A stretch of 64,000 nt of DNA, from the IMG/VR virus record IMGVR_UViG_3300017527_000512, positions 1-64,000 of that record; one strand, written 5' to 3'. Below the pieces are notes generated by a model. That model ran no database searches and was not told the DNA's origin. It was given only the letters and a program-made list of their open reading frames with translations. The DNA is from a virus. Both the position numbers and the translations under genes were made by a program. Below are positions 11,405-62,311 of the stretch, piece after piece. Within the stretch, counting starts at the first letter, position 1; every line of letters starts with the position of its first letter.

Positions 11405-11453
11405 TTTGATTGATTATTATTTATTTAATTAGTATTATTATTTGGAGTTACTT

Positions 11454-14177
11454 ATGCCTATAGATGTAACTGGTTTAAGACCGGATGTTTACAGTGAAAT
11501 AAATTTTGAATTAGAAAATCCGATTATACCGGCCAATACGCGTTTCCCTATGGTTGTCGGTCCTGCGGACGAACATTTTAATGTTCCGGCTACTGAGTTA
11601 GTTAGATATGGTATCAATCCAATATCAAAATATGACTTATCTCTTCAAGTGGATGGTCAAACGAAGCAATTTACGGTTCCTTCTTCCTATCTACCTATTG
11701 TAGATTCAGTAGGTAACGTTTCAGCTGACCCTAAAAGTATTACTGTTTGGTCCGGAGGAAAGAAACGTCAAGTCAAAGAGATAGAGGGAGCTACTGGTAT
11801 TTTCAGCTTAAGCGAGATTCTTCCAGTAGGATCTGATTTATTTGTAAGTTTCGCTTTTGACGATTTAGATATGGAAGTTTCCACTGATCTCCTTTCTCAG
11901 GTAGACGGAACAAACACGGTTTTTTATGTTGACCAACTATATATAGTAGATGGTTCAAACAGGGGGATTATTACTAATGATCCTTCTAATATTACTTTAT
12001 TAGTAGATGACGCTCCTTTTGAAGTAGCATCTCTAGACGGTGCATCAGGTAAGATAACTACTAAAATAGCTATTCCAAATACTGCTGCTTCAGCTTCAGT
12101 TACTTTTTATAGAGCATTTCCTCGTCAGTATGATTACGTTCCAGAACATAAACGTGTTTTGGAAATAGAGAAAGTTGGATCTAGACCAGATGCAGCGGAT
12201 TATATTAGAGGGACTCAGTACGTAGTTAAAACACTTGATGGTTTTAACATTATAGTTTGGGGAAGTTCTATCTTAATTGATGATAAAGTAAAAGATGCTG
12301 ATTCTGATGGTATTAAGAGTGTTTTACAAGCCACTGTTCATGACGATTTTATTATGAATGAAGAGCTTACAGATGTTGATTTTACAGTCAAGAACGGCTT
12401 TACAAAATCTCAAGTTCGTGATGGTTCGCATTTAGACAAAGTAACTCAAGATCCTTCTTTAGTTATTACTAGGGAATCAGCTACGGGAAGTGTAGAGACT
12501 TCTAGTTTGGTAGATACTATCTACGTTTTAGGTGACTCTAAAGAAATTAAATTCGCGAGTACTATACCTTCAGGCAAGATTTACAGTTCTTATTATAGAA
12601 ACGTTATATCAAACAACACCTTTTCTGTTAAAGTAACTGCTAAAGGCGGTATCGGTACAGGTAAATACTCACTTTTAGATAAGAGTGATGTAGTTATTCC
12701 TCATGTTATTCAAGGAACTCATAATTTAGTAGGTGGCCCTATAGCACCAGAATTCCCAGGCGGGATATTTGACGGTAGAGTTACTCCAGGAAAAGCTGTT
12801 TTAGGTACTTATAATTTAACTTTTACCTCTTCTAAAGAGTATAGCGTTGAATTCGATGATGGTGTTACTCCTGTAGTTATTGGAACAGGTGAATTAGATC
12901 AGACCTTCGAAGATCTTGATAGAGCAGTTTTCTGGACTATCATTACACCTACTTTAGGAACTTATCAGTCTGGAAACATTTTAGCATTTGAAGTAACGGA
13001 TGTTGATAGAGATGTTTCAGCGAGCCCAGTTTTTGATATCCCAGGTGTTCAATTAATCTTGAACACTACAGCAGATCTTGAAGTTGATGATCTTTCAGAG
13101 ATAGCTACTTACAATATCGAAACTCCTATTCCTTCAGGAACTTACTATTATTTGAAATATAAAATAGAGAAAAACACTATTCTTAACCCTTTATTTCTAA
13201 CTAGACAGGATTACCTTAATGGTAACGTTCCTATCTTTGTGGGAGAGAAGAATCTAGAAAATACAGGTGTTCTTGGTGTAGAAGCTGCTTTCGAAGCAGG
13301 GTCTCCTTATGTTTTATTCTTACAGTCTTATAAGAATTCTTTAGGATTCTCAGGCTCTCCAGAATATGAACAAGCCCGAGCAGTTTGGGAGAAAGGCTTT
13401 GAAAACAAATCAGACCCTTATTATATAGTTCCTATGACTATCAACTCTCAGATATTACAGACATTTAAAAACACTTCACTTCAATTATCTTCTTATAGAT
13501 ATGGTAGGGAATCTAGAGTATACATGTCAGTAGATCCAACTTTATCCTACAGAGAGATTATATCTTTTGTTGAGGGTTTCTCTAACGTTAGAATATCTTT
13601 ATTCTATCCAGGAGATCCGGTAATTGATTTTGTAGATGATGAAGGAAATGTCGAAGAATTTCAAGTAAGTCCTGCAGTAATACCTGCAGTAATTGCAGGT
13701 TTAAGATCTTCAGGTTTATATAATATAAGCGAATCTTTAGTAGGAGATACTAAAGCTATTCCTTATATTAAGAAAGTGAATACTACTCTTTATGAACCAT
13801 TTAATGGTCAATTAGACCTTGTAGGTGTTTCTATTCTTATAAATGAGGACGGCGTAGTCAAATTCTGGAATGAAAGTACTACAGATGCGTCTTCAGTTAA
13901 GACTAAGGAACCTACAGTAATAGAATCCGTGGATGATTTAGCAAAGACTGCTAGAAAAGCGTGTAAATCTGAAGTAGGCGAATATGCTGCAGATGATTCT
14001 TCTGTAGAGAAGATCATGAAAGCAGTATTATCTAATAAGATAACAGCTAACATAATTAGTGATTATGCTAACCTTACTATTTCAGCAGATCCAAATGATC
14101 CTCGTGTAACTAGGGTAAAAGTAAAAGTATTTGTACCTTCTATAAGGAAGTGGATTGCAATATCATTCGTTGTCTAG
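11454..14177 (+). CDS. Tail sheath protein
   Basis: The ATG at 11454 lies seven bases after GGAG (11444-11447); the in-frame TTG twelve bases upstream would overlap that site, so I use 11454 (907 aa). The C-terminus fits contractile tail sheath proteins: NGQLDLVGVSILINEDG, SVDDLAKTARKACKSEVGE, then ISADPNDPRVTRVKVKVFVPSIRKW over two stretches. Residues ~1-560 hold several beta-rich inserted domains (e.g. around KGGIGTGKYSLLDKSD), which makes this longer than T4 gp18 (659 aa). It polymerises around the tail tube and contracts on infection. It precedes the tube candidate, with a homing-type nuclease inserted between them. Confidence 0.88.
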   Translation: MPIDVTGLRPDVYSEINFELENPIIPANTRFPMVVGPADEHFNVPATELVRYGINPISKYDLSLQVDGQTKQFTVPSSYLPIVDSVGNVSADPKSITVWSGGKKRQVKEIEGATGIFSLSEILPVGSDLFVSFAFDDLDMEVSTDLLSQVDGTNTVFYVDQLYIVDGSNRGIITNDPSNITLLVDDAPFEVASLDGASGKITTKIAIPNTAASASVTFYRAFPRQYDYVPEHKRVLEIEKVGSRPDAADYIRGTQYVVKTLDGFNIIVWGSSILIDDKVKDADSDGIKSVLQATVHDDFIMNEELTDVDFTVKNGFTKSQVRDGSHLDKVTQDPSLVITRESATGSVETSSLVDTIYVLGDSKEIKFASTIPSGKIYSSYYRNVISNNTFSVKVTAKGGIGTGKYSLLDKSDVVIPHVIQGTHNLVGGPIAPEFPGGIFDGRVTPGKAVLGTYNLTFTSSKEYSVEFDDGVTPVVIGTGELDQTFEDLDRAVFWTIITPTLGTYQSGNILAFEVTDVDRDVSASPVFDIPGVQLILNTTADLEVDDLSEIATYNIETPIPSGTYYYLKYKIEKNTILNPLFLTRQDYLNGNVPIFVGEKNLENTGVLGVEAAFEAGSPYVLFLQSYKNSLGFSGSPEYEQARAVWEKGFENKSDPYYIVPMTINSQILQTFKNTSLQLSSYRYGRESRVYMSVDPTLSYREIISFVEGFSNVRISLFYPGDPVIDFVDDEGNVEEFQVSPAVIPAVIAGLRSSGLYNISESLVGDTKAIPYIKKVNTTLYEPFNGQLDLVGVSILINEDGVVKFWNESTTDASSVKTKEPTVIESVDDLAKTARKACKSEVGEYAADDSSVEKIMKAVLSNKITANIISDYANLTISADPNDPRVTRVKVKVFVPSIRKWIAISFVV

Positions 14178-30462: not shown

Positions 30463-33400
30463 ATGAATTTTATTTTACCAACTACTTCTATTAATTTCTC
30501 AACAGACTCAAGATCTATTATCTTCTACGGGGAAGATACTAATGTTGCTTTTGATAATGTTGATTCTGTGAGAGTTACAGTAAATGGTGATGATGTCCCT
30601 TCTTCGTATATCTCATTTAATAAGACTTACTTAGGTCCTGTTTTTGAGAAGTTTGTTTTAAAATTTACAGTAGATCTCTTTAAAGGAACTAATCTAATTT
30701 CAGTATTTCTTCTTCAAGGCGTTGTAGTATTAGATCAATCTGATTTAACTGTTGTTTATAGTTCAGAAGCGCAGATAGCTGCTGGACTAGAACCACCTTC
30801 TACTTTAGAATTTAATGAATTTGAGTCGAAAGTAGAATTATCTTGGAAGATGTCCGATATTTCTGGAATAAAGTATTTCAATGTTTATCGAGGTTTAGAC
30901 TCTTCTTTGGAGCAGTCTACTCTAACTTTAATAGACTCCGTAGAAGTAATATCATACTCCTTAGTCACTGAGAATATTCTTGTGGACGAAAAGCAGGTAG
31001 AGGATATAGTAACGGGGAATATTAAATTTACGAAAGAGTTTGAGGTCGCAGAATTTAATAAATTTAAGGCTGAGGTACTCTTAGACGAGGATAATTTAGA
31101 TAAACCTCAATACTTTGTTGTAAGTTCCGTATCAGCTATAGGAAACGAAGTATTTGAGTCTAGATTTTCTAATCCTGTTGAAGTTGTTTCTTTTACTATC
31201 CCGGGCCCTACTGATTTATTACCTGTACCTTCTAGGGTAGACCTAGCAGCAGATTTTATTGATTTTTTAGATGGCTTTGATAATTTAAAAGATGATCAAG
31301 GAAATCTTCCTGATGTGTTACCTCTAACACCTGTAACATCTCTTGTTGTAAATCCTGTATCTTACTTCCTACATAGGTTGTATGTACTTGATGAATTTCG
31401 CGATAAGATTTCATTTCTCCCTACCCTGTCACAGTTAGATGATGCAGACCAAGACGGCGTTTCAGATGATCCTAACTTCGGAGATAAGGCAAGATATGCT
31501 AGCACTTTTAATATTTCTCCTGAATTCATTCAGAAGTATATCGATAACATTTTTGATTTACACGCTTCGAGAGAATCTTTAAACCGGAAAGGTATTTTAT
31601 CTTCAGAGACCACTATATCTCTTACTTGGACTTCTAACACTCTTCCAGATAGTTTAAATATTGATACTACTACACGTTTTATTGCTCCTAAGTCAGTTAC
31701 AGGACTTTCTAGAGACCTTTTCTTTAAATCCTTAACAGATGTGTCTATAACGGATCAAACCAACGAGAGTTTCTATCAGGAGAGTTTAGGAAGATATCGT
31801 GCACTAGTTCGTGTTAGATGTGAGACAGGGGGATCTATAGGAAATATTTCTGCTAATGCGGTAAATTCGTTTGCATCTCCACCGCCTTTTGCTATTTCTG
31901 TTACAAATGAGAGTATTGTCCTCTCGGGAAGAGATAGTGAGTCAAACGGGGATTTGGCTAGAAGAATTTATGCTTCTAGAAGAGGTAGTTTAATTTCATC
32001 TAGATTCTGGCTTATACAAAAGATTTTAAATAGCAGTAACATACTTCAGTACTTTATCGCGAGAGCGGGAGATCCTTATTTACTTCGAGATTATGATTGG
32101 TTCCGCCAGGAGCATATAGGTGGAATGACTGATATTTACGTTAATTCTACAGCAATAGAACAGAGAGAGGAGATTATTCCTCTCCAAACGACTTTTACTC
32201 TAGATTACACTATTCTTGCTCGGTATGATATGGATTCAGGTGAGTTTTATGCGTTTTTACAACCGGACAAGAACCATCAAGAATTTATGAGAATGAATAT
32301 TATCGACACAGTTACATCCTGTGAGAATGTGTCTAGAGGTATTGACTATACTTCTCAGGTAGAGCTTCTAGAGAACAAATTTATTAGAGTACCTTATAGA
32401 TTTGATGACGCTACTTATAACTGGGCAGAAGGGGAAGTGTGTACAGTAACATTTAATTTACTTCCAAACAATTTCATCTTGAAATTAAGCTCTCCTCCTG
32501 TTTTAGACCTTTCTTATGTTAATGATGAGCAGGGTTTAGGGAGAACATCAATAAGTGATTTAAAGTATTTAGAGCCAGGTTTTATGTTAGGAGGATCTCC
32601 GTATTCTTTAGATGTCGTTCATGTCGCTGGATATAATCCTGTAGGAGGTATCGTTAAGTCGAAGGAAGAGCCTACGTTATCCTTATTCAAGGCAAAGGAT
32701 GTAGCCCTCTCAAAAAGAGGAGTTGATGATTCTACTGTAACGGTGGAATTCGAATCAGCTTTATTAGATCCTTCTGAGTTTGTTATAACAGAGGATACTG
32801 AAACATATCAGACTTTCATTCGTTTAAGCCCTTCTTATGCATTTAATACTGTTACAGCTAAAGTTAATTATGATTACAGAGAGAATTTTACAGTTAAATA
32901 TTCTTATGATCCTGTAGTTAGAACACTTCATGATTCTATTGCTGTTGATAATATAGTAGGTAAGCGTAATATGCTTGTTAAGAGAGCTAACTCTTTATCT
33001 CTAAGCATAGGAGCTGATATCTATATTCTGGATTTATTGAAGAAAGCAATAACAGATATTGAAATTAGAACAGCTATAGCAAGATTCGAGTCCACGATAC
33101 CTTTATCAAATAAGATATATCAGTCAAACTTAGTTTCAATAGTTGATTCTAATGACCAAGTAAGTAAAGTTGAAATCCCTTTTAATGAATCTTCATATTT
33201 TGACTCTACCTTAGATTTTTATGAATTATCTCAGGGCGAAGCATCTCTTGTAGGGGACTTCTATGAAGTATCTCTTCCTCGTATAAATTTTGAAGGAACC
33301 TTCAGTTTATGGAGTGGGAGATTATTCAAGTCAGTAAGAAAGACTTCAGTTTTAAGAGGGGTTGAGGGCGGATTTGAAGTATTCGGAGGATTCAACTTTG

Positions 33401-34551
33401 GTTCTTATCAGTATATAGTTAATACTCAGGAATTCTTTGATAATTTTCCCGAGAATTTAAGATGTTTATCTTTTCTTAGAACCGATTTAACGCTTTTTAG
33501 GAATTCATTTAGTGAGGGATCAGCATTAGATTACGATTTCTCCCTTAACATTGAGAAGTCAATGACAGTTTATATGATAATAGATGATTCTCTTTGCGAT
33601 ATGTATGGATCTTTTGAAGATGATTATATGGGAGAGACGGATGCTAGTTTAGGCGGATCTCGTCCTAGAGCAGAGTGGATTAGAAATGATGCTACTTGGG
33701 TAGATACGAATGATACTTTATCAGCAGGGGTTTTAGCTGGAAATACTTTTAAGATTTTTAGAAAGTTTTATTCTACAGGAAACCATATTTTTGGAGGCAA
33801 TCAACATAGAAGATCTTCTGATATCGATTCTCTATCGTTTACTTGTGATGGGGCCTTAGCCACTATTACATATCCTAGACATGGGTTTAAAGCATCTAAT
33901 GATATTACAATATTTAATTCTACAGCAGCTACGAGTCTTCCTAATGGAAGCTACTTAGTAGACTCAGTAATAGACGATGATACTTTTATAGTTCCTGTAT
34001 CTACTACTATAGTAGGCTCTGGTACTATAAGTCTTAAGTCTACGAATTCTTTACAGGTTGTGGATCCCTATATGTTTAACTTGATTTTCTCTGATCCTTC
34101 TTGGTCTTTTAATACTTCTGACGATATTTTATACACGAAGTCAGGTCAAGATATCTCATTTGATATTCCAGGACATGAGTTATTGGTAGGTCAGTCTTTT
34201 GAAGTAACGAAATCTTCTGATATAGTAGCGTGTCCTTTAGACTTTTATGACATTTCAGGAATTGCAGGGGATACTATTACCTTTCAGTCTGGAAACACTA
34301 ATGCGGGTGATGGTATACTATCAATAGAACAGTCCTTTGGACAAGAGAAAGTAGGGGAAGAATTTAAAGTAAGAATCAACCCTTTTTATGATAAAGCAAC
34401 AGGGGCTAGATCTTTAGCATCTAGATTAGTATTTAGTTTTAAATTAAGAGACGACGATATAGATTTAGAAGATTATTACGTTCCAAGAAATCAATTTGTT
34501 AAATTTGAGAATATAATATTTAATTATATTCCTGAGAGTAATAACGAGTAA
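30463..34551 (+). CDS. Baseplate J-like wedge protein
   Basis: 1362 aa. Residues ~115-230 look like an FN3 module (LSWKMSDISGIKYFNVYRGL). The J-type core follows: VTGLSRDLFFKSLTDVSI, YRALVRVRCETGGSIGNIS, PPFAISVTNESIVLSGRD, then ESNGDLARRIYASRRG and DPYLLRDYDW, matching gpJ/gp6 wedge proteins that form the ring of the baseplate. The C-terminal half (residues ~800-1362) is beta-rich and unassigned, including a region around FTCDGALATITYPRHGF that resembles short beta-repeat adhesin-like segments. Much longer than P2 gpJ (302 aa) because of these additions. Confidence 0.8.
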   Translation: MNFILPTTSINFSTDSRSIIFYGEDTNVAFDNVDSVRVTVNGDDVPSSYISFNKTYLGPVFEKFVLKFTVDLFKGTNLISVFLLQGVVVLDQSDLTVVYSSEAQIAAGLEPPSTLEFNEFESKVELSWKMSDISGIKYFNVYRGLDSSLEQSTLTLIDSVEVISYSLVTENILVDEKQVEDIVTGNIKFTKEFEVAEFNKFKAEVLLDEDNLDKPQYFVVSSVSAIGNEVFESRFSNPVEVVSFTIPGPTDLLPVPSRVDLAADFIDFLDGFDNLKDDQGNLPDVLPLTPVTSLVVNPVSYFLHRLYVLDEFRDKISFLPTLSQLDDADQDGVSDDPNFGDKARYASTFNISPEFIQKYIDNIFDLHASRESLNRKGILSSETTISLTWTSNTLPDSLNIDTTTRFIAPKSVTGLSRDLFFKSLTDVSITDQTNESFYQESLGRYRALVRVRCETGGSIGNISANAVNSFASPPPFAISVTNESIVLSGRDSESNGDLARRIYASRRGSLISSRFWLIQKILNSSNILQYFIARAGDPYLLRDYDWFRQEHIGGMTDIYVNSTAIEQREEIIPLQTTFTLDYTILARYDMDSGEFYAFLQPDKNHQEFMRMNIIDTVTSCENVSRGIDYTSQVELLENKFIRVPYRFDDATYNWAEGEVCTVTFNLLPNNFILKLSSPPVLDLSYVNDEQGLGRTSISDLKYLEPGFMLGGSPYSLDVVHVAGYNPVGGIVKSKEEPTLSLFKAKDVALSKRGVDDSTVTVEFESALLDPSEFVITEDTETYQTFIRLSPSYAFNTVTAKVNYDYRENFTVKYSYDPVVRTLHDSIAVDNIVGKRNMLVKRANSLSLSIGADIYILDLLKKAITDIEIRTAIARFESTIPLSNKIYQSNLVSIVDSNDQVSKVEIPFNESSYFDSTLDFYELSQGEASLVGDFYEVSLPRINFEGTFSLWSGRLFKSVRKTSVLRGVEGGFEVFGGFNFGSYQYIVNTQEFFDNFPENLRCLSFLRTDLTLFRNSFSEGSALDYDFSLNIEKSMTVYMIIDDSLCDMYGSFEDDYMGETDASLGGSRPRAEWIRNDATWVDTNDTLSAGVLAGNTFKIFRKFYSTGNHIFGGNQHRRSSDIDSLSFTCDGALATITYPRHGFKASNDITIFNSTAATSLPNGSYLVDSVIDDDTFIVPVSTTIVGSGTISLKSTNSLQVVDPYMFNLIFSDPSWSFNTSDDILYTKSGQDISFDIPGHELLVGQSFEVTKSSDIVACPLDFYDISGIAGDTITFQSGNTNAGDGILSIEQSFGQEKVGEEFKVRINPFYDKATGARSLASRLVFSFKLRDDDIDLEDYYVPRNQFVKFENIIFNYIPESNNE

Positions 34552-50861: not shown

Positions 50862-53800
50862 ATGGGTTATGAAATAATAACGACAGGTAACGTTCCATTA
50901 GTAGATCTTCAAGGATTGGGTATAGATCCTATTCCTCATCCATCTACATTAGATTTATTATCTTTTGGTTTATCCTTTGAAGAGATAAGCTCATCTAGTG
51001 ACTTACAAAGAGCGATATTAGACCAGGAAGTGGTTGTAGATTATAATGGTAGTATCATCGATAATACTGTTTTAGAGTCAAGCTCTGATCCTAGTATCGC
51101 TTTATTAACTGAAACCTTTCAGATTAAATCAGAAAAGGATCAGCCAGACGGATTTCCAGGTTTAGATTCTAGTGGTCATATTATTGATTCTCAGATACCT
51201 TCTACCATTCCTCGTGATACGGATTTATCTAATCATATTAATGACAATGATCTTCATCTTACTTCCCAGCAAAACTCTGATTTAGATGGGGATAAGTTCT
51301 TACATAGAGAAAATGATTCTTTAGATGATATTCCAGAAGGATCTACTTATTCTAAAGTTAAGACTGATTCTTTAACTTCGGGAGAAGTGGACCATACTAA
51401 GATTTTGAATAAAAATGCAGAAACGAATATTAAGCATGTAACAGATGATGTTCTTGCTTCGGCGGAGAACTCTCCCAATTCTCTTGCAGCAGGCAATCCT
51501 ATTTCAGATAAATCTTATACAGATTCTCAAGATAACTCATTACAGTTACAAATAAGTTCTAATGATATTGACATATCTACATTACAGTCTGGTAAGGTCG
51601 ATAAATCAGGATCTATATCTGATATAACTTCAAGAAATCATTCTGATTTACAGAACAAAAACGACGAGTCGGACATTAAACACATCACCGATGATCATTT
51701 AGGAGCCTTGAATAGTTCTACTAATAGTCTAACATCGTCAAATCCTATAGTAGATAAGCTCGAGTTTGATACAGCTATTGACAATTTACAATCGGAGATT
51801 GGAGGAAGGCTGTTGCCCCCTGTCCAAGATATTTCTTCTCTTAAAGCTATTGATACTACAATTGAAGCCGATTATAAGGATAAAACATTATGCAATGTGG
51901 AAGATAACGGTTTATATCGATTAGATCGCCAAAGCACTGAAACAGAAGATCTTGATAGAATAATTCAACCAACTACAGGTCCGGGTAGATGGCTTAAAAT
52001 GACTACTTCAATTAGTGATCATAACCTGTTATCAGTAATTCAAGGAGGGTCTGCATCAGAACGTTATCACCTTTTAGCGACCCAACACTCGTCATTAACA
52101 GGAGGATTTTCTTCTGATGCAGATACTTACCATACACATAACTTAAAAGTTGATAAGTCAGGGTCACTAGATCAGATTTCATTGAGAAATCATTCAGACT
52201 TACAAAACAAGAACCTTGAGTCTAATGTTAAACATCTAACTGATAGTTTATTAGCTTCTTTGGAAAATGCTCCGAATAATTTAACTGCAGTTAACCCTGT
52301 TACGGATAAATCTTATTCTGATACTCAAGATAGTGCATTACAGTCACAAATAACGTCAAATGACGGGGACATATCTACATTACAGTTAGGTAAGGCAGAT
52401 TCTGTTCATACTCATATCCCTTTAGAAGTTGGTCTAAATAATGTAACAGACGATGCTCAGCTTAAAAGAGAGGCTAATGATTTCTCTCCCTTTGGAGAGA
52501 AAGTTAATACGGTTCCTTCAGACAGAATTTTAGTAGAAGACAGTGAAGACTCATTTAATAAAGTATGGTCCAGTATTTCATCTATTGCAGCAGGTAGTGC
52601 TAATGTTTTTCATGCTTATGATGCTGGAGGTAACTTAGATATTACTTCAGGATTTCAGGATGTATTGCTAGACACGGAAGTTAAGAAAGATTCTTTTACA
52701 CACTTGAACGACTCTGCGGAGATAACTTTTACAGTTTCGGGGTGGTATCTTGTTCTTTATTATTGTGGTACTACTGGAGGAGGTAGAGCAGATTCTATGT
52801 CTAGACTTCAACAAGATTTAGGATCAGGATACGTTGATATACCTGGAACAGATTTATTCATGTATAATAGGCTAGCGTCTATAGGTAAGAATTCCGCAGC
52901 TGCTACTATTGTTAGACCTTTTTCAACAGGGGACAAAATTAAGATTATTGCTAAGAAAAATGCTGGGTCAGGGAATATTTTCACTGTTGCTAATGGTGTT
53001 GGGATATCTATTGTTCAAATAATCAATGCAGTAGATGGTTCTGGTGTCTCTAACTTTGGGGAATTGTCTGACGTAGTATTATCCTCATTAGTTGATAAGC
53101 AAATCGCTTCTTTTGACTTCTCTACAAACCAGTGGAAGAACGTTACTTTAGACTCTTCTTACATATCGGATTTTGATGAGAAGATTTCTGAGAATAGGGA
53201 TTTAATTCGTAATACTAAAGATGTTATGATAAATAGCCTGAAGATATCTACTTTAAATCTTTCTGAGGCTTACGGTAAGAATTCTTTCTTTGTAGACTCT
53301 TTCAACAATATCGATTTCATTGATGTGGAGTCTGTAAACTACTATTTGGACCCTAATGATTCATGGATAGGCTTAAATCCTGGAGGTAACTCTACTTTTG
53401 TCGATACTACTCAGAGCAATTTTGACTTAGGGGATTTTGGAAGCAATACTAGTGAATCTTTCTCAGATTTCGGTGGCGATGGGTCTATAAGAAAACGTCG
53501 TACTATCGAAGGGAGTATTTTATCTCTAGAGGATTTCGAAGACCTTTCTAACATTTCTGGAGTTGGTTCAGTTTCCGTGTATCAAAGCAACGCTTCAGGT
53601 ACTTTTATTGAAGGATCAAAATCTTTAAGAGCTCATATTGATTTCTCTGCTGTTTCATTAACAGAGACAGGGGATGTACTCATAGATTTAGGCGCAGGCG
53701 GAGTGGATCTTTCTTCCTATAAGTTTTTGAGATTTTCTTTTCTTAAGTTAGAGGGTAATTTATTTGATTACACCTTAGCAGTGATAGATACTGCCTCCGC

Positions 53801-55031
53801 CACGTATAGTTATACTCAACAGCCTTTAGACCAAGGAATTTCATTTCAGGAAGTTTCAGTTAGTCTTATAGACAGTTTTACGACAATTGATGAAACTTCC
53901 ATTAGATATATAAGACTCCGTTTTACAGAATTAGCATCTCAAAGATTTCTTCATATAACGGGAACAACGTTTGCACAGTTTGCTATTTCAGCAACAGCTA
54001 AAGGATGGCAGACCTTTAGAGTTACGGAAGATGTAGAATGTAGAAGGGTTCGTATTCATGCACGTTACTCAGGAGCAGTTCCTAATAGCCCATTAAACGT
54101 AGCAGTAACAGATGTTTTTGGAACAACTAGAGGGATTGCAGTAGTTCAACCTGGTGATGCAAGCACTACGTGGCAGGAGTTCTATTTAACGTTTGATAAT
54201 ATCTTTGATTTAAAAGCGGGATTCGACTATCAATTTAAAGTCGAATCTTTCAGCACAAATCAATGGCAGATCCGTACATTCACAAATGCGGGTTATGCTG
54301 GAGGTACTTTTTGGGAAGATAACGGAGGTTTCTTCGATCCCACGAATACTAATGATGATTTAGACTTTAGCTTATACAAGCCTGCAGTAATAGAAGATAT
54401 TTACATTGATAAAGTAGAGGCAGAGGCAGAGTCAACGTATATTCAGAACGCTACTTATACAAGTAGAAATATTGATCTAGGTTTAACCCCTTCTTCCTTA
54501 GATTCTCTTTATTGGGATTTAGTAGGATCTTCGGATACAGTTACTGTTCGGATTAAATTCGCAGCAACTGAATTAGGGTTACCTGTAGCTCCGTGGAACG
54601 GTCCATACTCAGATCCTACAGGCACTGGAAATAATTTAACAGGTATCACCCAGCAGCGATGGATGCAGTATGAAGTATCTTGGGCTTTAGGAACGACTCA
54701 AGATTCAGATAGTATAAAATCACTTAAATTGAATTATTCTTTACCAGTGGGTCAAGGAACAGCTACAGTTATTTCTAAGGTAGTGGCTCTTCAAAGCGAT
54801 CCAGAAGATTTCATTTTTTACTTTGCAGAAAAGGAAAGAGAGGGAAGCATAGATTATTCTATATCACGGGATGGTAAGGCTACTTTCCAATCCGTTCCTA
54901 GATCTCAGAAAGGCGTGCTAGTTCTTTTCTCATCTGGAACAGGGTCTAGTCTTCATTTAAAAGCAGTAATAACGGGAAATAGTCAATTATACGGATGGTC
55001 AGTTATACCTGATACAGAGCCTATTAGTTAA
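50862..55031 (+). CDS. Long tail fibre protein with internal repeats
   Basis: 1389 aa, AGG ribosome site, 2 nt after the shorter fibre gene. Residues ~180-515 carry three diverged repeats, each with (N)xNIKHVTDDxLA, a PNSLAAxNPISDKSYTDSQD-like stretch, and SSNDIDISTLQSGKVDKSGS. One copy of the LPPVQDISSLKAIDT...GPGRW module, shared with the shorter fibre, sits around residues 317-400. The C-terminal ~650 residues form beta-rich adhesin-like domains (TFRVTEDVECRRVRIHARYS, FYLTFDNIFDLKAGFDY) ending with a cap. This is the probable long receptor-recognising fibre. Confidence 0.78.
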   Translation: MGYEIITTGNVPLVDLQGLGIDPIPHPSTLDLLSFGLSFEEISSSSDLQRAILDQEVVVDYNGSIIDNTVLESSSDPSIALLTETFQIKSEKDQPDGFPGLDSSGHIIDSQIPSTIPRDTDLSNHINDNDLHLTSQQNSDLDGDKFLHRENDSLDDIPEGSTYSKVKTDSLTSGEVDHTKILNKNAETNIKHVTDDVLASAENSPNSLAAGNPISDKSYTDSQDNSLQLQISSNDIDISTLQSGKVDKSGSISDITSRNHSDLQNKNDESDIKHITDDHLGALNSSTNSLTSSNPIVDKLEFDTAIDNLQSEIGGRLLPPVQDISSLKAIDTTIEADYKDKTLCNVEDNGLYRLDRQSTETEDLDRIIQPTTGPGRWLKMTTSISDHNLLSVIQGGSASERYHLLATQHSSLTGGFSSDADTYHTHNLKVDKSGSLDQISLRNHSDLQNKNLESNVKHLTDSLLASLENAPNNLTAVNPVTDKSYSDTQDSALQSQITSNDGDISTLQLGKADSVHTHIPLEVGLNNVTDDAQLKREANDFSPFGEKVNTVPSDRILVEDSEDSFNKVWSSISSIAAGSANVFHAYDAGGNLDITSGFQDVLLDTEVKKDSFTHLNDSAEITFTVSGWYLVLYYCGTTGGGRADSMSRLQQDLGSGYVDIPGTDLFMYNRLASIGKNSAAATIVRPFSTGDKIKIIAKKNAGSGNIFTVANGVGISIVQIINAVDGSGVSNFGELSDVVLSSLVDKQIASFDFSTNQWKNVTLDSSYISDFDEKISENRDLIRNTKDVMINSLKISTLNLSEAYGKNSFFVDSFNNIDFIDVESVNYYLDPNDSWIGLNPGGNSTFVDTTQSNFDLGDFGSNTSESFSDFGGDGSIRKRRTIEGSILSLEDFEDLSNISGVGSVSVYQSNASGTFIEGSKSLRAHIDFSAVSLTETGDVLIDLGAGGVDLSSYKFLRFSFLKLEGNLFDYTLAVIDTASATYSYTQQPLDQGISFQEVSVSLIDSFTTIDETSIRYIRLRFTELASQRFLHITGTTFAQFAISATAKGWQTFRVTEDVECRRVRIHARYSGAVPNSPLNVAVTDVFGTTRGIAVVQPGDASTTWQEFYLTFDNIFDLKAGFDYQFKVESFSTNQWQIRTFTNAGYAGGTFWEDNGGFFDPTNTNDDLDFSLYKPAVIEDIYIDKVEAEAESTYIQNATYTSRNIDLGLTPSSLDSLYWDLVGSSDTVTVRIKFAATELGLPVAPWNGPYSDPTGTGNNLTGITQQRWMQYEVSWALGTTQDSDSIKSLKLNYSLPVGQGTATVISKVVALQSDPEDFIFYFAEKEREGSIDYSISRDGKATFQSVPRSQKGVLVLFSSGTGSSLHLKAVITGNSQLYGWSVIPDTEPIS

Positions 55032-55964: not shown

Positions 55965-56360
55965 ATGTATTCTAAATTGACATACATCATTATATCGTGC
56001 TCAATAGGAGCTTTTATAGCTCTTTTAGGTAAAATTGTGTGGGATTGGCTAGCTAATAGAAACAAGTCTGATTTATGTAATCTTGATGATCTTAAAGATC
56101 TTATCATTAAAGATAAGAAAGAGATTCAAGTCATACTAAATAGTTATAGAGATCGTTTAGAAAAGGATTTAAATGGTTTAGGTAATAAAGTATCTCAGCA
56201 AGTCATTGTTATTTCAAATGAAGTTAAGAGTATAAACGTTCGTTTAAATAAAGATTTCGTTAGTATGGGCGATTTTGTAGAAGTTCAGCAAAAATTAGAC
56301 AATATAAAGGAACGTGTGATAGGTTTGGAGAAGTATAATGAATTCAAGCAAGACTCATGA
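55965..56360 (+). CDS. Membrane-anchored coiled-coil protein, spanin-like layout
   Basis: 131 aa. One N-terminal membrane segment (IIISCSIGAFIALLGKIVW) followed by a long charged helix/coiled coil (DKKEIQVILNSYRDRLEKDL, VQQKLDNIKERVIGLEKY). This layout recalls inner-membrane spanins, and the gene is followed by a two-helix small membrane protein, but the lytic transglycosylase is five kilobases away and no outer-membrane spanin was seen. Alternatively it may serve the adjacent GGDEF-EAL protein. Overlaps the next gene by 23 nt. Confidence 0.6.
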   Translation: MYSKLTYIIISCSIGAFIALLGKIVWDWLANRNKSDLCNLDDLKDLIIKDKKEIQVILNSYRDRLEKDLNGLGNKVSQQVIVISNEVKSINVRLNKDFVSMGDFVEVQQKLDNIKERVIGLEKYNEFKQDS

Positions 56361-56568
56361 GGAAAAGATTGATATAGAAGATATAATATATAACCATTTT
56401 TATAATTTTCTTTGGGGAATCCCGGCTCTTATTTTTATAATTTTATTGTTTCTCCTGAAGAAATCCTTATTATTTTCTTTAATAGCTTTTATTATTTCAG
56501 TATTTATATCATTTTTAATTATGATAGGTATTTTCCTTCTATTTATGAGAAATAAGCCTGTTTGTTGA
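56338..56568 (+). CDS. Small two-helix membrane protein, holin candidate
   Basis: 76 aa, GGAG ribosome site. Acidic N-terminus (EEKIDIEDIIYN), then two hydrophobic segments (FLWGIPALIFIILLFLL and LLFSLIAFIISVFISFLIM in part) and a short tail. Size and topology fit a class II holin, and a coiled-coil membrane protein precedes it. Its stop precedes the GGDEF-EAL start by 17 nt. Function unproven. Confidence 0.5.
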   Translation: MNSSKTHEEKIDIEDIIYNHFYNFLWGIPALIFIILLFLLKKSLLFSLIAFIISVFISFLIMIGIFLLFMRNKPVC

Positions 56569-56585: not shown

Positions 56586-59150
56586 GTGAATTCTACTAAA
56601 GAAAGTAATCTTCTGCTTTATTCGAAAGTTTTGACAAAATTATATAATATCTTAATTACGATTTTCCCTTTTACATATTCTTTACAGATTGTAGGTTCGG
56701 TTGTTGCAAGTTCAGATCAGGGTACAGTCTTATACTCGATTAAGATAGCTGTAACTTTTTTTACTTTCATTGTTTTTATTATAACGAGATTTTCAAAGAG
56801 ATTTAAGGAGAGGATATTACCCTTTGTAATATTTTTCCTTATGTTTTATTTGATAGCTATTATGGGTTTTACTGTTATAAGAGAGTCTCATAATATGATG
56901 CAGCATTTTTTAATGGGAGGGGCTTTAGTTTTATGTGCTGTAGTATTCCCTAATTTAAGATGGCTGATTCCATATATGATATTTTCCTTAGGTATGGTTT
57001 TTTCAACATTTTATTTTAGTCATGGATTACGTTATGCTATAGGAGGTTCAGTAAGTATTTCTATGATGTTTTTACTGTTTTTCTTTTTCTTTAAGATTCG
57101 TATGTATGTAGACAAAGAAATGCTGTCTATTTCTCAAGAGAAGCAGAAGCTTATAGTAGAAAACTTAAAACATAAATCTCTTTTTAATAGCTCTTCAGAC
57201 ATTACTTTATTTTTTAACTCTGAGCACTGCGTTACAGATATCAACTCTTCTGGATTGGTTAAATTGGGTTATGAAATGAGTTTTATCAAAGGGAAGTCTC
57301 TCTTTGAACTTCCATTTTTTGATGACAGTGCGAAGATTTTCTTGAGCAGAAGTATGGCTACTATAGAAGAAGGTAGACAGTCTGTAGTAGATTTTAAAGT
57401 TAACTTTATTTCAGCATTTGCTAGCAATCATTACTATGATCTCCAATTATTTAAGGTAGTAGAGGAGAAGTTCTCAGGCATTGCTTGTGTTGCTAGAGAT
57501 TTTTCCAAGACTTATGAAATGCAATTAAAACATGAGGAGACAGAGAGACTCCTTCTATCTATTATACAGAATATTCCTGTAGGGGTTCTTATTATAGATT
57601 CAGGAAAAAGAATTAAAATAGTTAATGATGCAGCATGCAGCATAACAGGATATTCCAAGAAGGATTTACAAGGGAAGCATTGTTATATATTTTGTGAGCA
57701 CGGATTTAAAGATACTTGCCCTATTGATAAGGGGTGTGATATGGAAGGAGAAGAATCTTATATTCTCCATAAGGAAGGTACAAAGATACCTATATTGAGA
57801 TCAGCAAATATTGTTTATATAAATAAAAAGAGGCATAAACTAGAGTCCTTTTTTGATGTTTCTCGACAGAAAGAGGCAGATAGAAAGTTAACGGAGATGG
57901 TTTATAAAGATGAATTAACTGGTACTTTTAATAGAAAAGCATTTGAGGAAAAGATGTCAGAGGCTTTTTATGAGGAAGATCATCGGGAAGATATGAAGGT
58001 GTTGGTAGGGATAGATTTTGATAATTTCAAGTTTATTAATGACAGTTATGGTCATACTGCAGGAGATACCGTTTTAAAAGAGTTTGTATCTCGTACAAGA
58101 TATTTCCTTCGTGACTCTGATTTTTTATTTAGAATCGGGGGAGACGAATTCGCTTTATTTTTAGATGATATTAAATCCGAGATGAATGCTGTAGCTATTC
58201 TGGATAAACTTAGAGCAGTTAACTCAGCTAAACTATGTTTAGAGTCGGGACAAGAAATTTCATATTCATGTTCTTATGGGGCGGTAATTTACCCGGAACA
58301 TGGAAAAGACTTAGAGACTCTGTGGGATAAGGCAGATAAAGCGTTATATTGGTCGAAAGAAAAAGGAAAGAGTCAGATATCCTTTTTTGGTGGTGAGATA
58401 TATGATCTCTATGATAGAGACAAACAGGTGAGAAACCTTATTCAAAGTTGTATGGATAACAAGTTTAAAACTGTTTTATTTCAGCCAATACTAAGAGGAG
58501 GAGATCTTTATAAATTTGAGGCACTCTTTAGATTTGACATAGAGAACTTCATTTTAGATAATACTGAGCTTTTCTTTAAAGAAATAGAGAAAGATAAGCA
58601 GATGGTTAAGAATATAGATTATTGGGTTGTAGAAGAAGTAGTTAAAGTTTTAAAGAATCTTAAAGTTCCAATTAGTATTAATGTATCGGCGAGTCATTTT
58701 GATTTAAATTACTATAATCATATAAGATACTTATTAGACTTTAACAAAGTAGATCCTTCTCTTCTATTTATTGAAATAACAGAACGTGCTGTATTTACTA
58801 ATATTAATGTGGTTAAGATAGTTAAAGTGTTTCGTAACGCGGGCATCCGTCTTATTATAGATGACTTCGGAAGTAAACAATCAGACTGGGACCGTTTATT
58901 TGAATTAGATATCGATGAAATTAAAATAGACAAGAAATATATTGATAGATTACAAGAGGGTGATAATAAAGCATTGAGTATTATTAAAGCGTTTAAAGTT
59001 GCTGCGGATGGATTGAATATTTCTGTAATAGCTGAGGGAGTTGAGACAGAAGGTCAGAAGAAATTATTAAGTTCAATAGGAGTTAATAATATTCAAGGAT
59101 TCATTTTTAGCAAACCTATTAGAAGAGAGGAAATGTCTAAATTCATTTAG
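56586..59150 (+). CDS. Membrane-bound PAS-PAS-GGDEF-EAL cyclic-di-GMP enzyme
   Basis: I place the start at GTG 56586 after AGGAGA, not at the TTG codons upstream that overlap the previous gene; 854 aa. About six membrane segments (residues ~20-175), two PAS-like domains (~200-315, ~320-430, the second with several Cys), GGDEF (residues 518-522 in RIGGDEF), an RxxD inhibitory site R509-x-x-D512 exactly five residues before it, then EAL at 645-647 with NVSAS, EITER, DDFGSKQSDWD, EIKIDKKYID, AEGVET and QGFIFSKP motifs. Both halves look catalytically complete: synthesis by GGDEF, hydrolysis by EAL. PAS input may set the balance. Very unusual in a phage; pairs with the HD-GYP protein at 4.2-5.4 kb. 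Confidence 0.93.
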   Translation: MNSTKESNLLLYSKVLTKLYNILITIFPFTYSLQIVGSVVASSDQGTVLYSIKIAVTFFTFIVFIITRFSKRFKERILPFVIFFLMFYLIAIMGFTVIRESHNMMQHFLMGGALVLCAVVFPNLRWLIPYMIFSLGMVFSTFYFSHGLRYAIGGSVSISMMFLLFFFFFKIRMYVDKEMLSISQEKQKLIVENLKHKSLFNSSSDITLFFNSEHCVTDINSSGLVKLGYEMSFIKGKSLFELPFFDDSAKIFLSRSMATIEEGRQSVVDFKVNFISAFASNHYYDLQLFKVVEEKFSGIACVARDFSKTYEMQLKHEETERLLLSIIQNIPVGVLIIDSGKRIKIVNDAACSITGYSKKDLQGKHCYIFCEHGFKDTCPIDKGCDMEGEESYILHKEGTKIPILRSANIVYINKKRHKLESFFDVSRQKEADRKLTEMVYKDELTGTFNRKAFEEKMSEAFYEEDHREDMKVLVGIDFDNFKFINDSYGHTAGDTVLKEFVSRTRYFLRDSDFLFRIGGDEFALFLDDIKSEMNAVAILDKLRAVNSAKLCLESGQEISYSCSYGAVIYPEHGKDLETLWDKADKALYWSKEKGKSQISFFGGEIYDLYDRDKQVRNLIQSCMDNKFKTVLFQPILRGGDLYKFEALFRFDIENFILDNTELFFKEIEKDKQMVKNIDYWVVEEVVKVLKNLKVPISINVSASHFDLNYYNHIRYLLDFNKVDPSLLFIEITERAVFTNINVVKIVKVFRNAGIRLIIDDFGSKQSDWDRLFELDIDEIKIDKKYIDRLQEGDNKALSIIKAFKVAADGLNISVIAEGVETEGQKKLLSSIGVNNIQGFIFSKPIRREEMSKFI

Positions 59151-60333: not shown

Positions 60334-60690
60334 ATGTCTAATAAAATATCAGTACTCGTTTATGGATCTTTACGTGAGGGTTTTGGTAATCATAGATTAT
60401 TAGAGCATCCTGATGTAGAGAAAGGTTCTAGAGGTATGATTAAGGGATTTGCTATGTATAGTTTTGGTATGTATCCCATGTGTAGTGTGAGCCCGGATGA
60501 TACTATTTTTGTCGAGAATTACTTAGTACCTGAAGAAGTATTTATATTTCTAGATAGATTAGAAGGATATCCGTCTTTTTATAATAGGAAACAAGTTGAA
60601 TATAAAGATATGCTGAGTTGGATTTATTTCGGAAATAAAGATCAGGTGCGTGGTTTACCTAAGGTAGAGGAGGGAATTTGGCAAAGGTAA
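60334..60690 (+). CDS. Gamma-glutamylcyclotransferase-like (AIG2/GGCT) protein
   Basis: 118 aa. The family signature YGSLREGFGNH near the N-terminus forms the substrate-binding loop, and LDRLEGYPSFYNRK carries the conserved glutamate E77, catalytic in GGCT enzymes. Members release 5-oxoproline from gamma-glutamyl amines or peptides; the phage substrate is unknown. GGAG ribosome site; its end overlaps the next gene by 13 nt, so it is co-expressed with the MinD/FlhG-like ATPase. Confidence 0.8.
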   Translation: MSNKISVLVYGSLREGFGNHRLLEHPDVEKGSRGMIKGFAMYSFGMYPMCSVSPDDTIFVENYLVPEEVFIFLDRLEGYPSFYNRKQVEYKDMLSWIYFGNKDQVRGLPKVEEGIWQR

Positions 60691-61403
60691 TAGTAGTAAC
60701 GAGTGGTAAAGGTGGTGTAGGTAAATCCAATGTTTCCTTGAATATCGCTTATACGCTTTCAAAATCATCAAAAACTCTTTTATTAGACGCTGATTTAGGT
60801 ATGGGAGATATAGGTTTCCTTCTTGGAATGAATTTTGAGTATGATTTAACTGATTATTTTTATCGTAATAAGATTAAGATGGCTGATATCATTTATCAAT
60901 ACTCCACTTTATTTATTGTAACTTCTGGATCTGGTGATTTGGATGCAGTTAATCTAAGAGATTCATATAAGAGAAGTTTTTACGATTTATTCAAATTATT
61001 TATGAAAAAGTTTGATTATATAGTTATAGACACTTCTCCCGGTATCTCAAAAAATACAATGTTATTTCTTGATTTGGCTACTGAAATTATATTCTTATCC
61101 AGTCTTGAGCTTCCTTCGCTTATGGACTGTTATCAACAAATCAAGGTATTTAATTCTATTAATTTAGTATGCAAAAAGAATGTATTATTTAATATTGTTA
61201 AAGATCTTGAACTATCTTCAATGAAGTTTAATGTTCTTCAACATAGTGTGAGCAAATTTTTAAATTCCGAACTAAATTTTTTAGGTTCATTGAAGAACGA
61301 TAGTAGTATTGGGTTAGCAGTAGAGGAACAGATTCCTTTTGTTTCTCTTTTTCCTAAATCTTTTAATACTAAAATAATAAGAAGTATATCCAATAATTTA
61401 TAG
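60678..61403 (+). CDS. MinD/ParA-family ATPase, FlhG-like
   Basis: 241 aa, TTG start with GAGGAGGG upstream inside the previous gene. Deviant Walker A KGGVGKSN near residue 11-18, followed by LLLDADLGMGDIGFLLG and YIVIDTSPGISKN, as in MinD/ParA/FlhG ATPases that dimerise on ATP at membranes or DNA. The DADLGMGDI motif and GKGGVGKSN are closer to FlhG/YlxH (flagellar number control) than to plasmid ParA. No evident C-terminal membrane-targeting helix. It may position phage components, or interfere with host FlhG and so with motility; this is inference. No ParB gene is adjacent. Confidence 0.82.
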   Translation: MAKVIVVTSGKGGVGKSNVSLNIAYTLSKSSKTLLLDADLGMGDIGFLLGMNFEYDLTDYFYRNKIKMADIIYQYSTLFIVTSGSGDLDAVNLRDSYKRSFYDLFKLFMKKFDYIVIDTSPGISKNTMLFLDLATEIIFLSSLELPSLMDCYQQIKVFNSINLVCKKNVLFNIVKDLELSSMKFNVLQHSVSKFLNSELNFLGSLKNDSSIGLAVEEQIPFVSLFPKSFNTKIIRSISNNL

Positions 61404-61411
61404 GGGTTATT

Positions 61412-62311
61412 ATGGAAAATGAAAACAGAACTATAGAAGATGTTGATTCTCCTGCGCAGATTAACTTATCATCTTTAGAGGATAACTTTAGCTTGTCTAA
61501 CCTGCATGTTTCTTTATTAAAAAAATTCAGGACGTCTAAGTTACTAATAGGTATTATATTAATGAGTTTGATAGTTTGTGTAGCTTCTATAGCGGTTTTA
61601 TGGTCTCAATACAAACACTTAACTTATCAAAATAAGTTACACTATCAGATGCTATATAATATAAATAAATCAGCCTTTAATGATAGTAGAAAAGAGGTTG
61701 CTACACTTTGGTTTAGCAGTGTTGCTTTATTATATTACCCTTATTATACTGAACAAGATATGTCAGATTTGGCAGAGCTTGTCTATGAAACAGGGGAAGT
61801 TAAATATAATATTCCTATGGAGTTTTGGGCGACTTTCTTTGCTTACGAGAGTTCTTTCAATTTTGAAGTTGTTCATCAACGTACTGGAGCTACGGGATTA
61901 TCGCAGATAATGCCTGTCTTAGGATCTTATTTAGCTGAAGCATGTGGTATTCCTTATAAAGGGTCTAAGACTCTTAAGAACCCTTTATACAATGCGCGTA
62001 TGGGTATGAGATTTTACAAAGATTTATTTGATGAATATGGCTTCAAATTTGCATTATGCGGGTATAATTGGGGAGAAGGAAAAGCAAATGAGTGGAAGAA
62101 AGCCGGATCAATCCCTAAGACAAAAAGATTTTATTATCATAATTTTTTAAGGACTAAGGTTGAGATAGAGCAGGCTACAGGTAAGAAGTATCCTATTCCT
62201 TATATAGATAGTAAAGATTATGCGTATATTGAGTCAAAGTATTTAAAAGAGAAAGTAGAGAAATTAAAGCAAAAGGTAAAAACAGCTACTTCTAAGGGAG
62301 ATACTAATTAG
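61412..62311 (+). CDS. Membrane-anchored lytic transglycosylase
   Basis: 299 aa, AGGGG ribosome site. A single N-terminal membrane helix (residues ~44-64; LLIGIILMSLIVCVASIAVLW) places the catalytic domain outside the cytoplasm. The SLT domain is clear: E146 in AYESSF as the catalytic glutamate, then GATGLSQIMP and the ALCGYNWGEG motif, with NPLYNARMGMRFYKDL typical of soluble lytic transglycosylase folds. It cuts peptidoglycan glycan strands, as endolysin or wall-remodelling enzyme. The C-terminal tail is basic and Lys-rich. Confidence 0.85.
   Translation: MENENRTIEDVDSPAQINLSSLEDNFSLSNLHVSLLKKFRTSKLLIGIILMSLIVCVASIAVLWSQYKHLTYQNKLHYQMLYNINKSAFNDSRKEVATLWFSSVALLYYPYYTEQDMSDLAELVYETGEVKYNIPMEFWATFFAYESSFNFEVVHQRTGATGLSQIMPVLGSYLAEACGIPYKGSKTLKNPLYNARMGMRFYKDLFDEYGFKFALCGYNWGEGKANEWKKAGSIPKTKRFYYHNFLRTKVEIEQATGKKYPIPYIDSKDYAYIESKYLKEKVEKLKQKVKTATSKGDTN

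What the first reader, a model, noticed from the sequence alone, without database searches (positions are those of the whole stretch)
56586..59150. Phage-encoded PAS-PAS-GGDEF-EAL protein with an intact inhibitory site
GGDEF, EAL with its usual neighbours, and the RxxD product-inhibition site spaced exactly five residues ahead of GGDEF are present. A bifunctional, sensory, membrane-bound cyclic-di-GMP enzyme is a very unusual phage cargo, and a second pathway enzyme (HD-GYP) lies 51 kb upstream.
Basis: partly seen in the sequence, partly recalled or inferred. Interest (0 to 1): 0.9.

Follow-up and report, generated by a model that had tools for sequence, protein, structure and literature searches.

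The report
Phage-borne cyclic-di-GMP make-and-break enzyme
A large bacterial virus carries its own membrane-bound sensor enzyme for making, and perhaps breaking, the bacterial lifestyle signal cyclic-di-GMP, plus a separate enzyme for breaking it; such genes recur patchily in other large phages and suggest that phages retune this signal in the cells they infect.

Summary
Window 56586-59150 (+) encodes an 854-aa protein: about six predicted membrane helices, two PAS domains (one strong, one weak), GGDEF and EAL. The diguanylate-cyclase active site and the RxxD inhibitory site are intact. The EAL domain keeps every catalytic and metal-binding residue, but loop 6, normally DDFG(T/A)GYSS, reads DDFGSKQSD, so phosphodiesterase activity is uncertain. 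The HD-GYP gene is real too (4231-5388, membrane-bound, full motif).

The gene sits in a real phage: a 164.5-kb record, probably a fragment of a jumbo-type myophage, with a tail sheath related to that of Bacillus phage G. Neighbouring genes share one strand, and the gene's codon usage matches the record's mean (z = 0.25), so a host chimera is unlikely.

It is not unique. A pattern scan of IMG/VR gave 171 contigs with GGDEF-EAL-type proteins. Many are prophage edges with host genes, but at least four others carry a tail sheath; one 170-kb myophage has GGDEF-EAL and HD-GYP side by side. Phage diguanylate cyclases and jumbo-phage HD-GYP enzymes are published.

Best reading: an accessory module that resets host c-di-GMP during infection. 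Direction, timing and host are unknown. New member of a known kind, moderate interest.

The parts
56586..59150 (+). Membrane PAS-PAS-GGDEF-EAL protein, 854 aa (GTG start, stop included)
56649..57098 (+). N-terminal membrane part, about six hydrophobic helices (residues 22-171); no Pfam sensor family
   Evidence: hydropathy; helices in model; no family
57168..57500 (+). Probable first PAS domain (residues ~195-305), weak
   Evidence: second PAS stretch at lax limit; strands 206-305 at low pLDDT
57558..57863 (+). Second PAS domain (residues ~325-426)
   Evidence: PAS_9 1.3e-13; 1.6e-14; model
57903..58373 (+). GGDEF diguanylate-cyclase domain
   Evidence: PF00990 1.7e-38; fold like YfiN GGDEF, TM 0.94
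58110..58121 (+). RxxD product-inhibition (I-) site, R509-D512
   Evidence: sequence; column counts
58137..58151 (+). GGDEF motif, residues 518-522
58461..59117 (+). EAL domain (residues 626-844)
   Evidence: PF00563 4.6e-41; fold like MucR/MorA EAL, TM 0.87-0.89
58860..58889 (+). EAL loop 6, DDFGSKQSDW instead of DDFG(T/A)GYSS
4231..5388 (+). Membrane HD-GYP protein, 385 aa (ATG preceded by GGAGA)
   Evidence: HD_5 3.2e-26; PDB 4mcw; start; membrane helices; motif alignment
55965..56360 (+). Small protein, one membrane helix plus coiled-coil-like part (holin/spanin-like by appearance only)
   Evidence: no family
56338..56568 (+). 76-aa membrane protein directly upstream
60678..61403 (+). MinD/ParA-type ATPase downstream (context)
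61412..62311 (+). Membrane-anchored lytic transglycosylase (context)
   Evidence: SLT 1.7e-13
50862..55031 (+). Long repetitive tail-fibre-like protein upstream (context)
   Evidence: sequence; no PHROG family hit; 35% over 77 aa to a tail-protein region of G009; position and repeats only
11442..14177 (+). Tail sheath (phage identity)
   Evidence: (Tunturi_5 and phage G tail sheaths)
30463..34551 (+). Baseplate wedge / Baseplate_J protein (phage identity)
   Evidence: phrog_6 1.9e-12; Baseplate_J 3e-6

Best explanation
A genuine phage accessory gene for a membrane-anchored PAS-PAS-GGDEF-EAL protein. Shown by sequence: intact diguanylate-cyclase site with feedback I-site, EAL with all catalytic residues but altered loop 6, plus a separate intact membrane HD-GYP phosphodiesterase in the same record. 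Inferred: the N-terminal membrane/PAS part senses the state of the infected cell and sets the balance between c-di-GMP synthesis (GGDEF) and, if loop 6 still works, hydrolysis (EAL), while the HD-GYP protein is the dedicated hydrolase. Together they replace the host's control of c-di-GMP during infection, altering surface, motility or envelope state (for example blocking the biofilm response to lysis, or changing receptors for superinfection) to the benefit of phage progeny.
For: Domains and motifs. Predicted fold: GGDEF like YfiN (TM 0.94), EAL like MucR/MorA (TM 0.87-0.89). Phage context: sheath, baseplate, homing endonucleases, LigA, DNA polymerase I, thymidylate synthase, tRNA array. Codon usage of both genes is at the record's mean (z 0.25 and -0.1), so they are long resident. 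A second myophage (G009, 170 kb, tail sheath 2.6e-82) carries GGDEF-EAL and HD-GYP side by side just after its tail-fibre region. Other large phage records carry 3-4 GGDEF genes. Published rationale: lysis products raise c-di-GMP and biofilm that protects from phage (PMC11726461); a c-di-GMP-dependent glycan is the N4 receptor (PMC8669472).
Against: No expression, activity or host is known. Loop 6 is atypical. The protein has a long branch (1.34 against a median of 0.46) and at most 32% identity to any sampled homologue, so specificity could have drifted. The two enzymes are 46 genes apart here, so co-action is inferred. Relatives of this phage by tail sheath lack both families, so the genes are dispensable. 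No PilZ receptor or c-di-GMP riboswitch in the record.
Confidence: 0.55

Rival explanations
1. Counter-defence: HD-GYP, EAL and the two DHH-type enzymes degrade cyclic (oligo)nucleotide alarm signals of host immune systems such as CBASS; c-di-GMP control is secondary.
For: Iyer et al. 2021 assign jumbo-phage HD-GYP and DHH phosphodiesterases to counter-nucleotide defence (PMC7824862). The record also holds two DHH-family proteins (126490-127551 and 145727-146641), an HD_4-like and a CYTH protein. The first DHH protein aligns end to end with a cyclic-dinucleotide phosphodiesterase, weakly (E 0.004).
Against: It does not explain an intact synthase with an I-site, or membrane anchoring with PAS domains. 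The EAL family is c-di-GMP specific (established knowledge). The HD-GYP protein's best PDB match is the c-di-GMP type 4mcw rather than the cGAMP enzyme 5z7c.
Confidence: 0.2
2. The EAL half is catalytically dead or weak because of loop 6 and serves as a c-di-GMP receptor or allosteric part; the protein is in effect a regulated diguanylate cyclase that raises c-di-GMP.
For: DDFGSKQSD against DDFG(T/A)GYSS, which is reported as essential for dimerisation and Mg/substrate binding. In 109 aligned homologues G764 is G in 108 (the sample is biased by the search pattern). The EAL score, 141 bits, lies below most EAL domains of ten genomes.
Against: All metal ligands and the catalytic Lys and Gln are kept, whereas many low-scoring EAL domains lose them. 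One of 20 low-scoring chromosomal domains has a similar altered loop with the other residues intact (L215, DDFGSASLD), and its activity is unknown.
Confidence: 0.2
3. Host DNA in a chimeric or contaminated contig.
For: c-di-GMP enzymes are typical bacterial genes; IMG/VR and GenBank phage sets contain many such contaminants.
Against: Gene lies between a long tail-fibre-like gene and further phage-type genes on the same strand; codon usage, GC and skew are those of the record; no close bacterial homologue found.
Confidence: 0.03

Closest known systems
PAS-GGDEF-EAL and GGDEF-EAL proteins of bacteria (PA0861/RbdA, MorA, MucR, PA0575, DosP)
   Same: Domain order, active-site residues, predicted fold
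   Different: Encoded by a phage; altered EAL loop 6; at most 32% identity to any sampled homologue
PHROG_11823 (phage protein family with GGDEF-EAL)
   Same: Same PAS-GGDEF-EAL span matched at 1.6e-87
   Different: Its members are not named here and carry no function; the profile is 693 aa against 854 aa here
GGDEF genes of Bacillus phages G (gp350) and SP-15 and of uncultured phages
   Same: Phage-encoded diguanylate-cyclase fold; phage G also shares a distant tail sheath
   Different: GGDEF without EAL; no viral GGDEF-EAL tandem of comparable length among the best BFVD matches
G009 (IMGVR_UViG_3300035182_000466), 170-kb myophage
   Same: Membrane PAS-GGDEF-EAL plus HD-GYP, downstream of the tail-fibre region
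   Different: The two genes are adjacent and its HD-GYP lacks obvious membrane helices; few other proteins shared (LigA, radical SAM, DHH)
HD-GYP enzymes of jumbo phages (Iyer et al. 2021, PMC7824862)
   Same: Phage HD-GYP phosphodiesterase
   Different: There interpreted as counter-defence and not described with GGDEF-EAL
Citrobacter phage Chris1 EAL protein (ON041214)
   Same: EAL domain encoded in a complete phage genome
   Different: Temperate 45-kb phage with integrase; the protein has an EAL domain but no recognisable GGDEF in the alignment

Membership tests
GGDEF diguanylate cyclases | Profile match and intact GG[DE]EF, metal and GTP-binding residues | tested here: met
   PF00990 1.7e-38; D442, N449, D477, N485, D486, G489, H490, D494, R516, GGDEF, K591 kept
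GGDEF diguanylate cyclases | RxxD I-site five residues before GGDEF | tested here: met
   R509-D512; R is present at this column in 74 of 109 homologues, so the site is common
GGDEF diguanylate cyclases | Enzymatic c-di-GMP synthesis | not testable with these tools
   needs an assay
EAL phosphodiesterases | ExLxR, N, ExTE, DD, K, EGVE, Q residues | tested here: met
   E645, R649, N699, E730, E733, D759, D760, K780, E817, E820, Q837
EAL phosphodiesterases | Loop 6 DDFG(T/A)GYSS | tested here: not met
   DDFGSKQSD. So: an EAL-family domain, not shown to be an active phosphodiesterase
HD-GYP phosphodiesterases | HDxGK plus HHExxDGxGYP and metal-binding H/D residues | tested here: met
   LHDVGK, H263, HHERWDGTGYP, D323
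PAS sensor domains | Profile match for two PAS domains | tested here: inconclusive
   second domain strong; first one only at the lax limit and low model confidence
Phage auxiliary gene (not host contamination) | Embedded among phage genes with the phage's composition | tested here: met
Phage auxiliary gene (not host contamination) | Conserved in related phages | tested here: not met
   absent from 12 sheath-related IMG/VR records, several of them short fragments, and from Tunturi_5; phage G has one GGDEF gene and no HD_5
Jumbo-phage counter-nucleotide enzymes (Iyer 2021) | Cleavage of immune cyclic nucleotides | not testable with these tools
   -

The most novel reading that the evidence does not exclude
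Some large phages carry a private c-di-GMP circuit (sensor synthase GGDEF-EAL, hydrolase HD-GYP, perhaps a DHH enzyme that clears pGpG) that takes over the host's motile/sessile decision during infection; this record and the G009 operon would be two separate examples.
Probability: 0.2. Interest if true: 0.75.

Novelty: new member of a known kind. Interest (0 to 1): 0.5.

Why it matters
Host c-di-GMP is known to affect phage susceptibility, through receptors and biofilm, but I found no published case where a virulent-type phage was shown to control the signal with its own synthase and hydrolase. The pair here and the adjacent pair in G009 give concrete genes with which to test whether phages set host c-di-GMP during infection. 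The altered EAL loop 6 combined with intact catalytic residues is also a natural test of whether that loop is truly required for activity.

Tried and rejected
Host chimera: rejected on gene context, strand and codon usage. Close relatives through rare 8-residue peptides of this protein, of the tail sheath and of the MinD-like protein: none in IMG/VR. IMG/VR prophage contigs L097 and L122: examined and discounted as phage cargo, because the signalling gene lies at the contig edge beside an integrase or recombinase; L098-L100 and L106 were taken as the same kind from their similar layout, not examined gene by gene. GenBank 'phage' hits from Salmonella, Acinetobacter MD-2021a, vB_EcoS-683R6 and Microcystis MaAM05: discounted as host DNA by their chromosomal or ribosomal neighbours or record type. 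HD-GYP hit L008 lies on a contig with recombinase and relaxase-like genes. Host identification: best bacterial homologues are only about 31% identical and scattered over several phyla; no host assigned. No PilZ receptor and no c-di-GMP riboswitch. Terminase not found with PF03237, PF17289 or phrog_2, so the record may be a fragment or have a divergent terminase. The promoter scan of the region found fewer matches than shuffled sequence, so nothing was inferred from it. The first sheath-based scan failed; only the alignment-based one found relatives.

Full report
What is there. Window 56586-59150 on the + strand is one open frame of 854 residues. Pfam finds GGDEF (5.2e-36), EAL (4.6e-41) and a PAS domain (1.3e-13). 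A second, upstream PAS is supported only weakly and by PAS-like strands at low confidence in an AlphaFold model. About six hydrophobic helices precede them. The predicted fold matches PAS-GGDEF-EAL of PA0861, GGDEF-EAL of MorA and PA0575 and DosP; single domains superpose well (GGDEF on YfiN, TM 0.94; EAL on MucR and MorA, TM 0.87-0.89).

Are the sites intact? In a 24-sequence alignment the GGDEF metal, GTP and signature residues are all conserved. The RxxD inhibitory site is R509-D512, five residues before GGDEF; R at this column occurs in 74 of 109 homologues, so the site is real but common. In EAL all metal ligands and catalytic residues are kept. Loop 6 is not: DDFGSKQSD against DDFG(T/A)GYSS. 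That loop is described as needed for dimerisation and for Mg and substrate binding (PMC7290235; PMC5301497). In my sample 108 of 109 proteins have G where this one has K, though the sample was partly selected on that motif. Of 20 low-scoring chromosomal EAL domains, one (L215, DDFGSASLD) has a comparable altered loop with the other residues kept. So 'bifunctional' is possible but not shown.

The second enzyme. The HD-GYP gene is real. Its likely start is ATG 4231, after GGAGA. The 385-aa protein has a multi-helix membrane part and the full HDxGK and HHExxDGxGYP set, closest among solved structures to 4mcw (E 2.8e-47).

Is it phage? The record has 164,540 bases. Nearly all large ORFs lie on the + strand. 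It carries a tail sheath related to those of Tunturi_5 and Bacillus phage G, a baseplate wedge/Baseplate_J protein, three homing endonucleases, a DNA polymerase I-like protein, LigA and thymidylate synthase and 16-17 tRNA genes. GGDEF-EAL and HD-GYP have codon usage at the record's mean (z 0.25 and -0.1 over 113 genes). A chimera is therefore unlikely. No terminase was found; sheath relatives are mostly 235-500 kb where long, so this record may be part of a larger genome.

How unusual? A pattern scan with an alignment found 171 IMG/VR contigs encoding GGDEF-EAL-type relatives, of which 80 were returned. Inspection showed prophage edges in which the enzyme is a host gene next to an integrase or recombinase (L097, L122). 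But real large phages are among them: tail sheath was found in G009 (2.6e-82), G046, G032 and G040. G009, 170 kb, has a membrane PAS-GGDEF-EAL gene at 63237-65153 and an HD-GYP gene at 65164-66105, eleven bases apart, downstream of a tail-fibre cluster and upstream of its structural genes. GGDEF-EAL genes also sit near tail-fibre-type genes in L123 and L162. Some large records carry several GGDEF genes: three in G040, four in G047, three in G048 and G050. Of 51 records tested (this one and 50 others with GGDEF-EAL) only this one, G009 and the probable prophage edge L122 have an HD_5 match. Structural relatives of this phage lack GGDEF and HD-GYP, except phage G, which has one GGDEF gene. So the genes are patchy cargo. 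In the tree the phage enzyme has a long branch (1.34, median 0.46), at most 32% identity and no strongly supported partner, so neither a recent host donor nor a single phage clade is shown.

How it might work. Shown: domains, sites, membrane helices, phage context. Inferred: the membrane and PAS part senses cell state, GGDEF makes c-di-GMP under feedback inhibition, EAL hydrolyses or binds it, and HD-GYP removes it. Two reasons for a phage to care are published: peptidoglycan from lysed cells raises c-di-GMP and induces biofilm that protects from phage (PMC11726461), and a c-di-GMP-dependent surface glycan is the receptor of phage N4 (PMC8669472). Late expression is only a guess from the position near tail genes. 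The main rival is counter-defence: jumbo-phage HD-GYP and DHH enzymes have been read as destroyers of immune cyclic nucleotides (PMC7824862), and this record has two DHH-family proteins, one weakly similar to a cyclic-dinucleotide phosphodiesterase (E 0.004). That rival does not explain an intact synthase.

What is known. Phage GGDEF proteins (phage G gp350, SP-15 and others), a DGC in Mu-like marine phages (PMC7785012), mucR-type genes in two sargassum viruses (PMC11295528), an EAL protein in temperate phage Chris1, HD-GYP in jumbo phages (PMC7824862), and an unannotated PHROG family with the same GGDEF-EAL span (1.6e-87). My literature searches found no report of a phage with both GGDEF-EAL and HD-GYP, but the library is open access only. 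I therefore file it as a new member of a known kind; the pairing is its most interesting feature.

Noticed in passing
record coordinates 37990, 47264 (window); 86698, 86984, 91851, 150420 (L003, L006): At least six otherwise unrelated proteins begin with MK(S/A/I)(R/K)(P/S)F(I/L/S)S-like residues. This resembles the N-terminal capsid-targeting sequence of T4 internal proteins (from memory) and may mark proteins packaged in the capsid and injected.
   Followed up: partly
record 126490-127551 (L005:5490-6551): DHH-family protein with strongly deviating codon usage (z -3.6), so probably a recent acquisition; weak end-to-end match to a cyclic-dinucleotide phosphodiesterase.
   Followed up: partly
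record 82342-100030 (L002, L003): Array of 16-17 tRNA genes; one reported by ARAGORN with a four-base anticodon cttc (99956-100030), and two Rfam tRNA matches with unusually long spans of 120-129 nt (L003:4735-4854 and 4860-4988).
   Followed up: no
window 7620-9335, 14196-15947, 36253-37944: Three homing-endonuclease genes of one PHROG family scattered through the structural gene block.
   Followed up: no
G040 and G047 (IMG/VR records of L144 and L163): Two very large phage-like records (250 and 224 kb) carry three and four separate GGDEF genes, more than expected of accidental cargo.
   Followed up: partly
L168:9311-15353 (467-kb record): Two paralogous GGDEF-EAL genes with a third GGDEF gene between them, in tandem on one strand.
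   Followed up: no
L124:9692-12687 (136-kb record): GGDEF-EAL gene directly followed, with a 4-base overlap, by a gene that looks like an HDOD-type protein (from sequence appearance only).
   Followed up: no
window 60678-61403: MinD/ParA-type ATPase next to a membrane lytic transglycosylase gene; role in the phage unknown.
   Followed up: no
MW495066 (Microcystis phage MaAM05), 30-39 kb: The GenBank record annotated as a phage carries secE, nusG and rplK next to its HD-GYP gene, so it is probably bacterial DNA in part.
   Followed up: no
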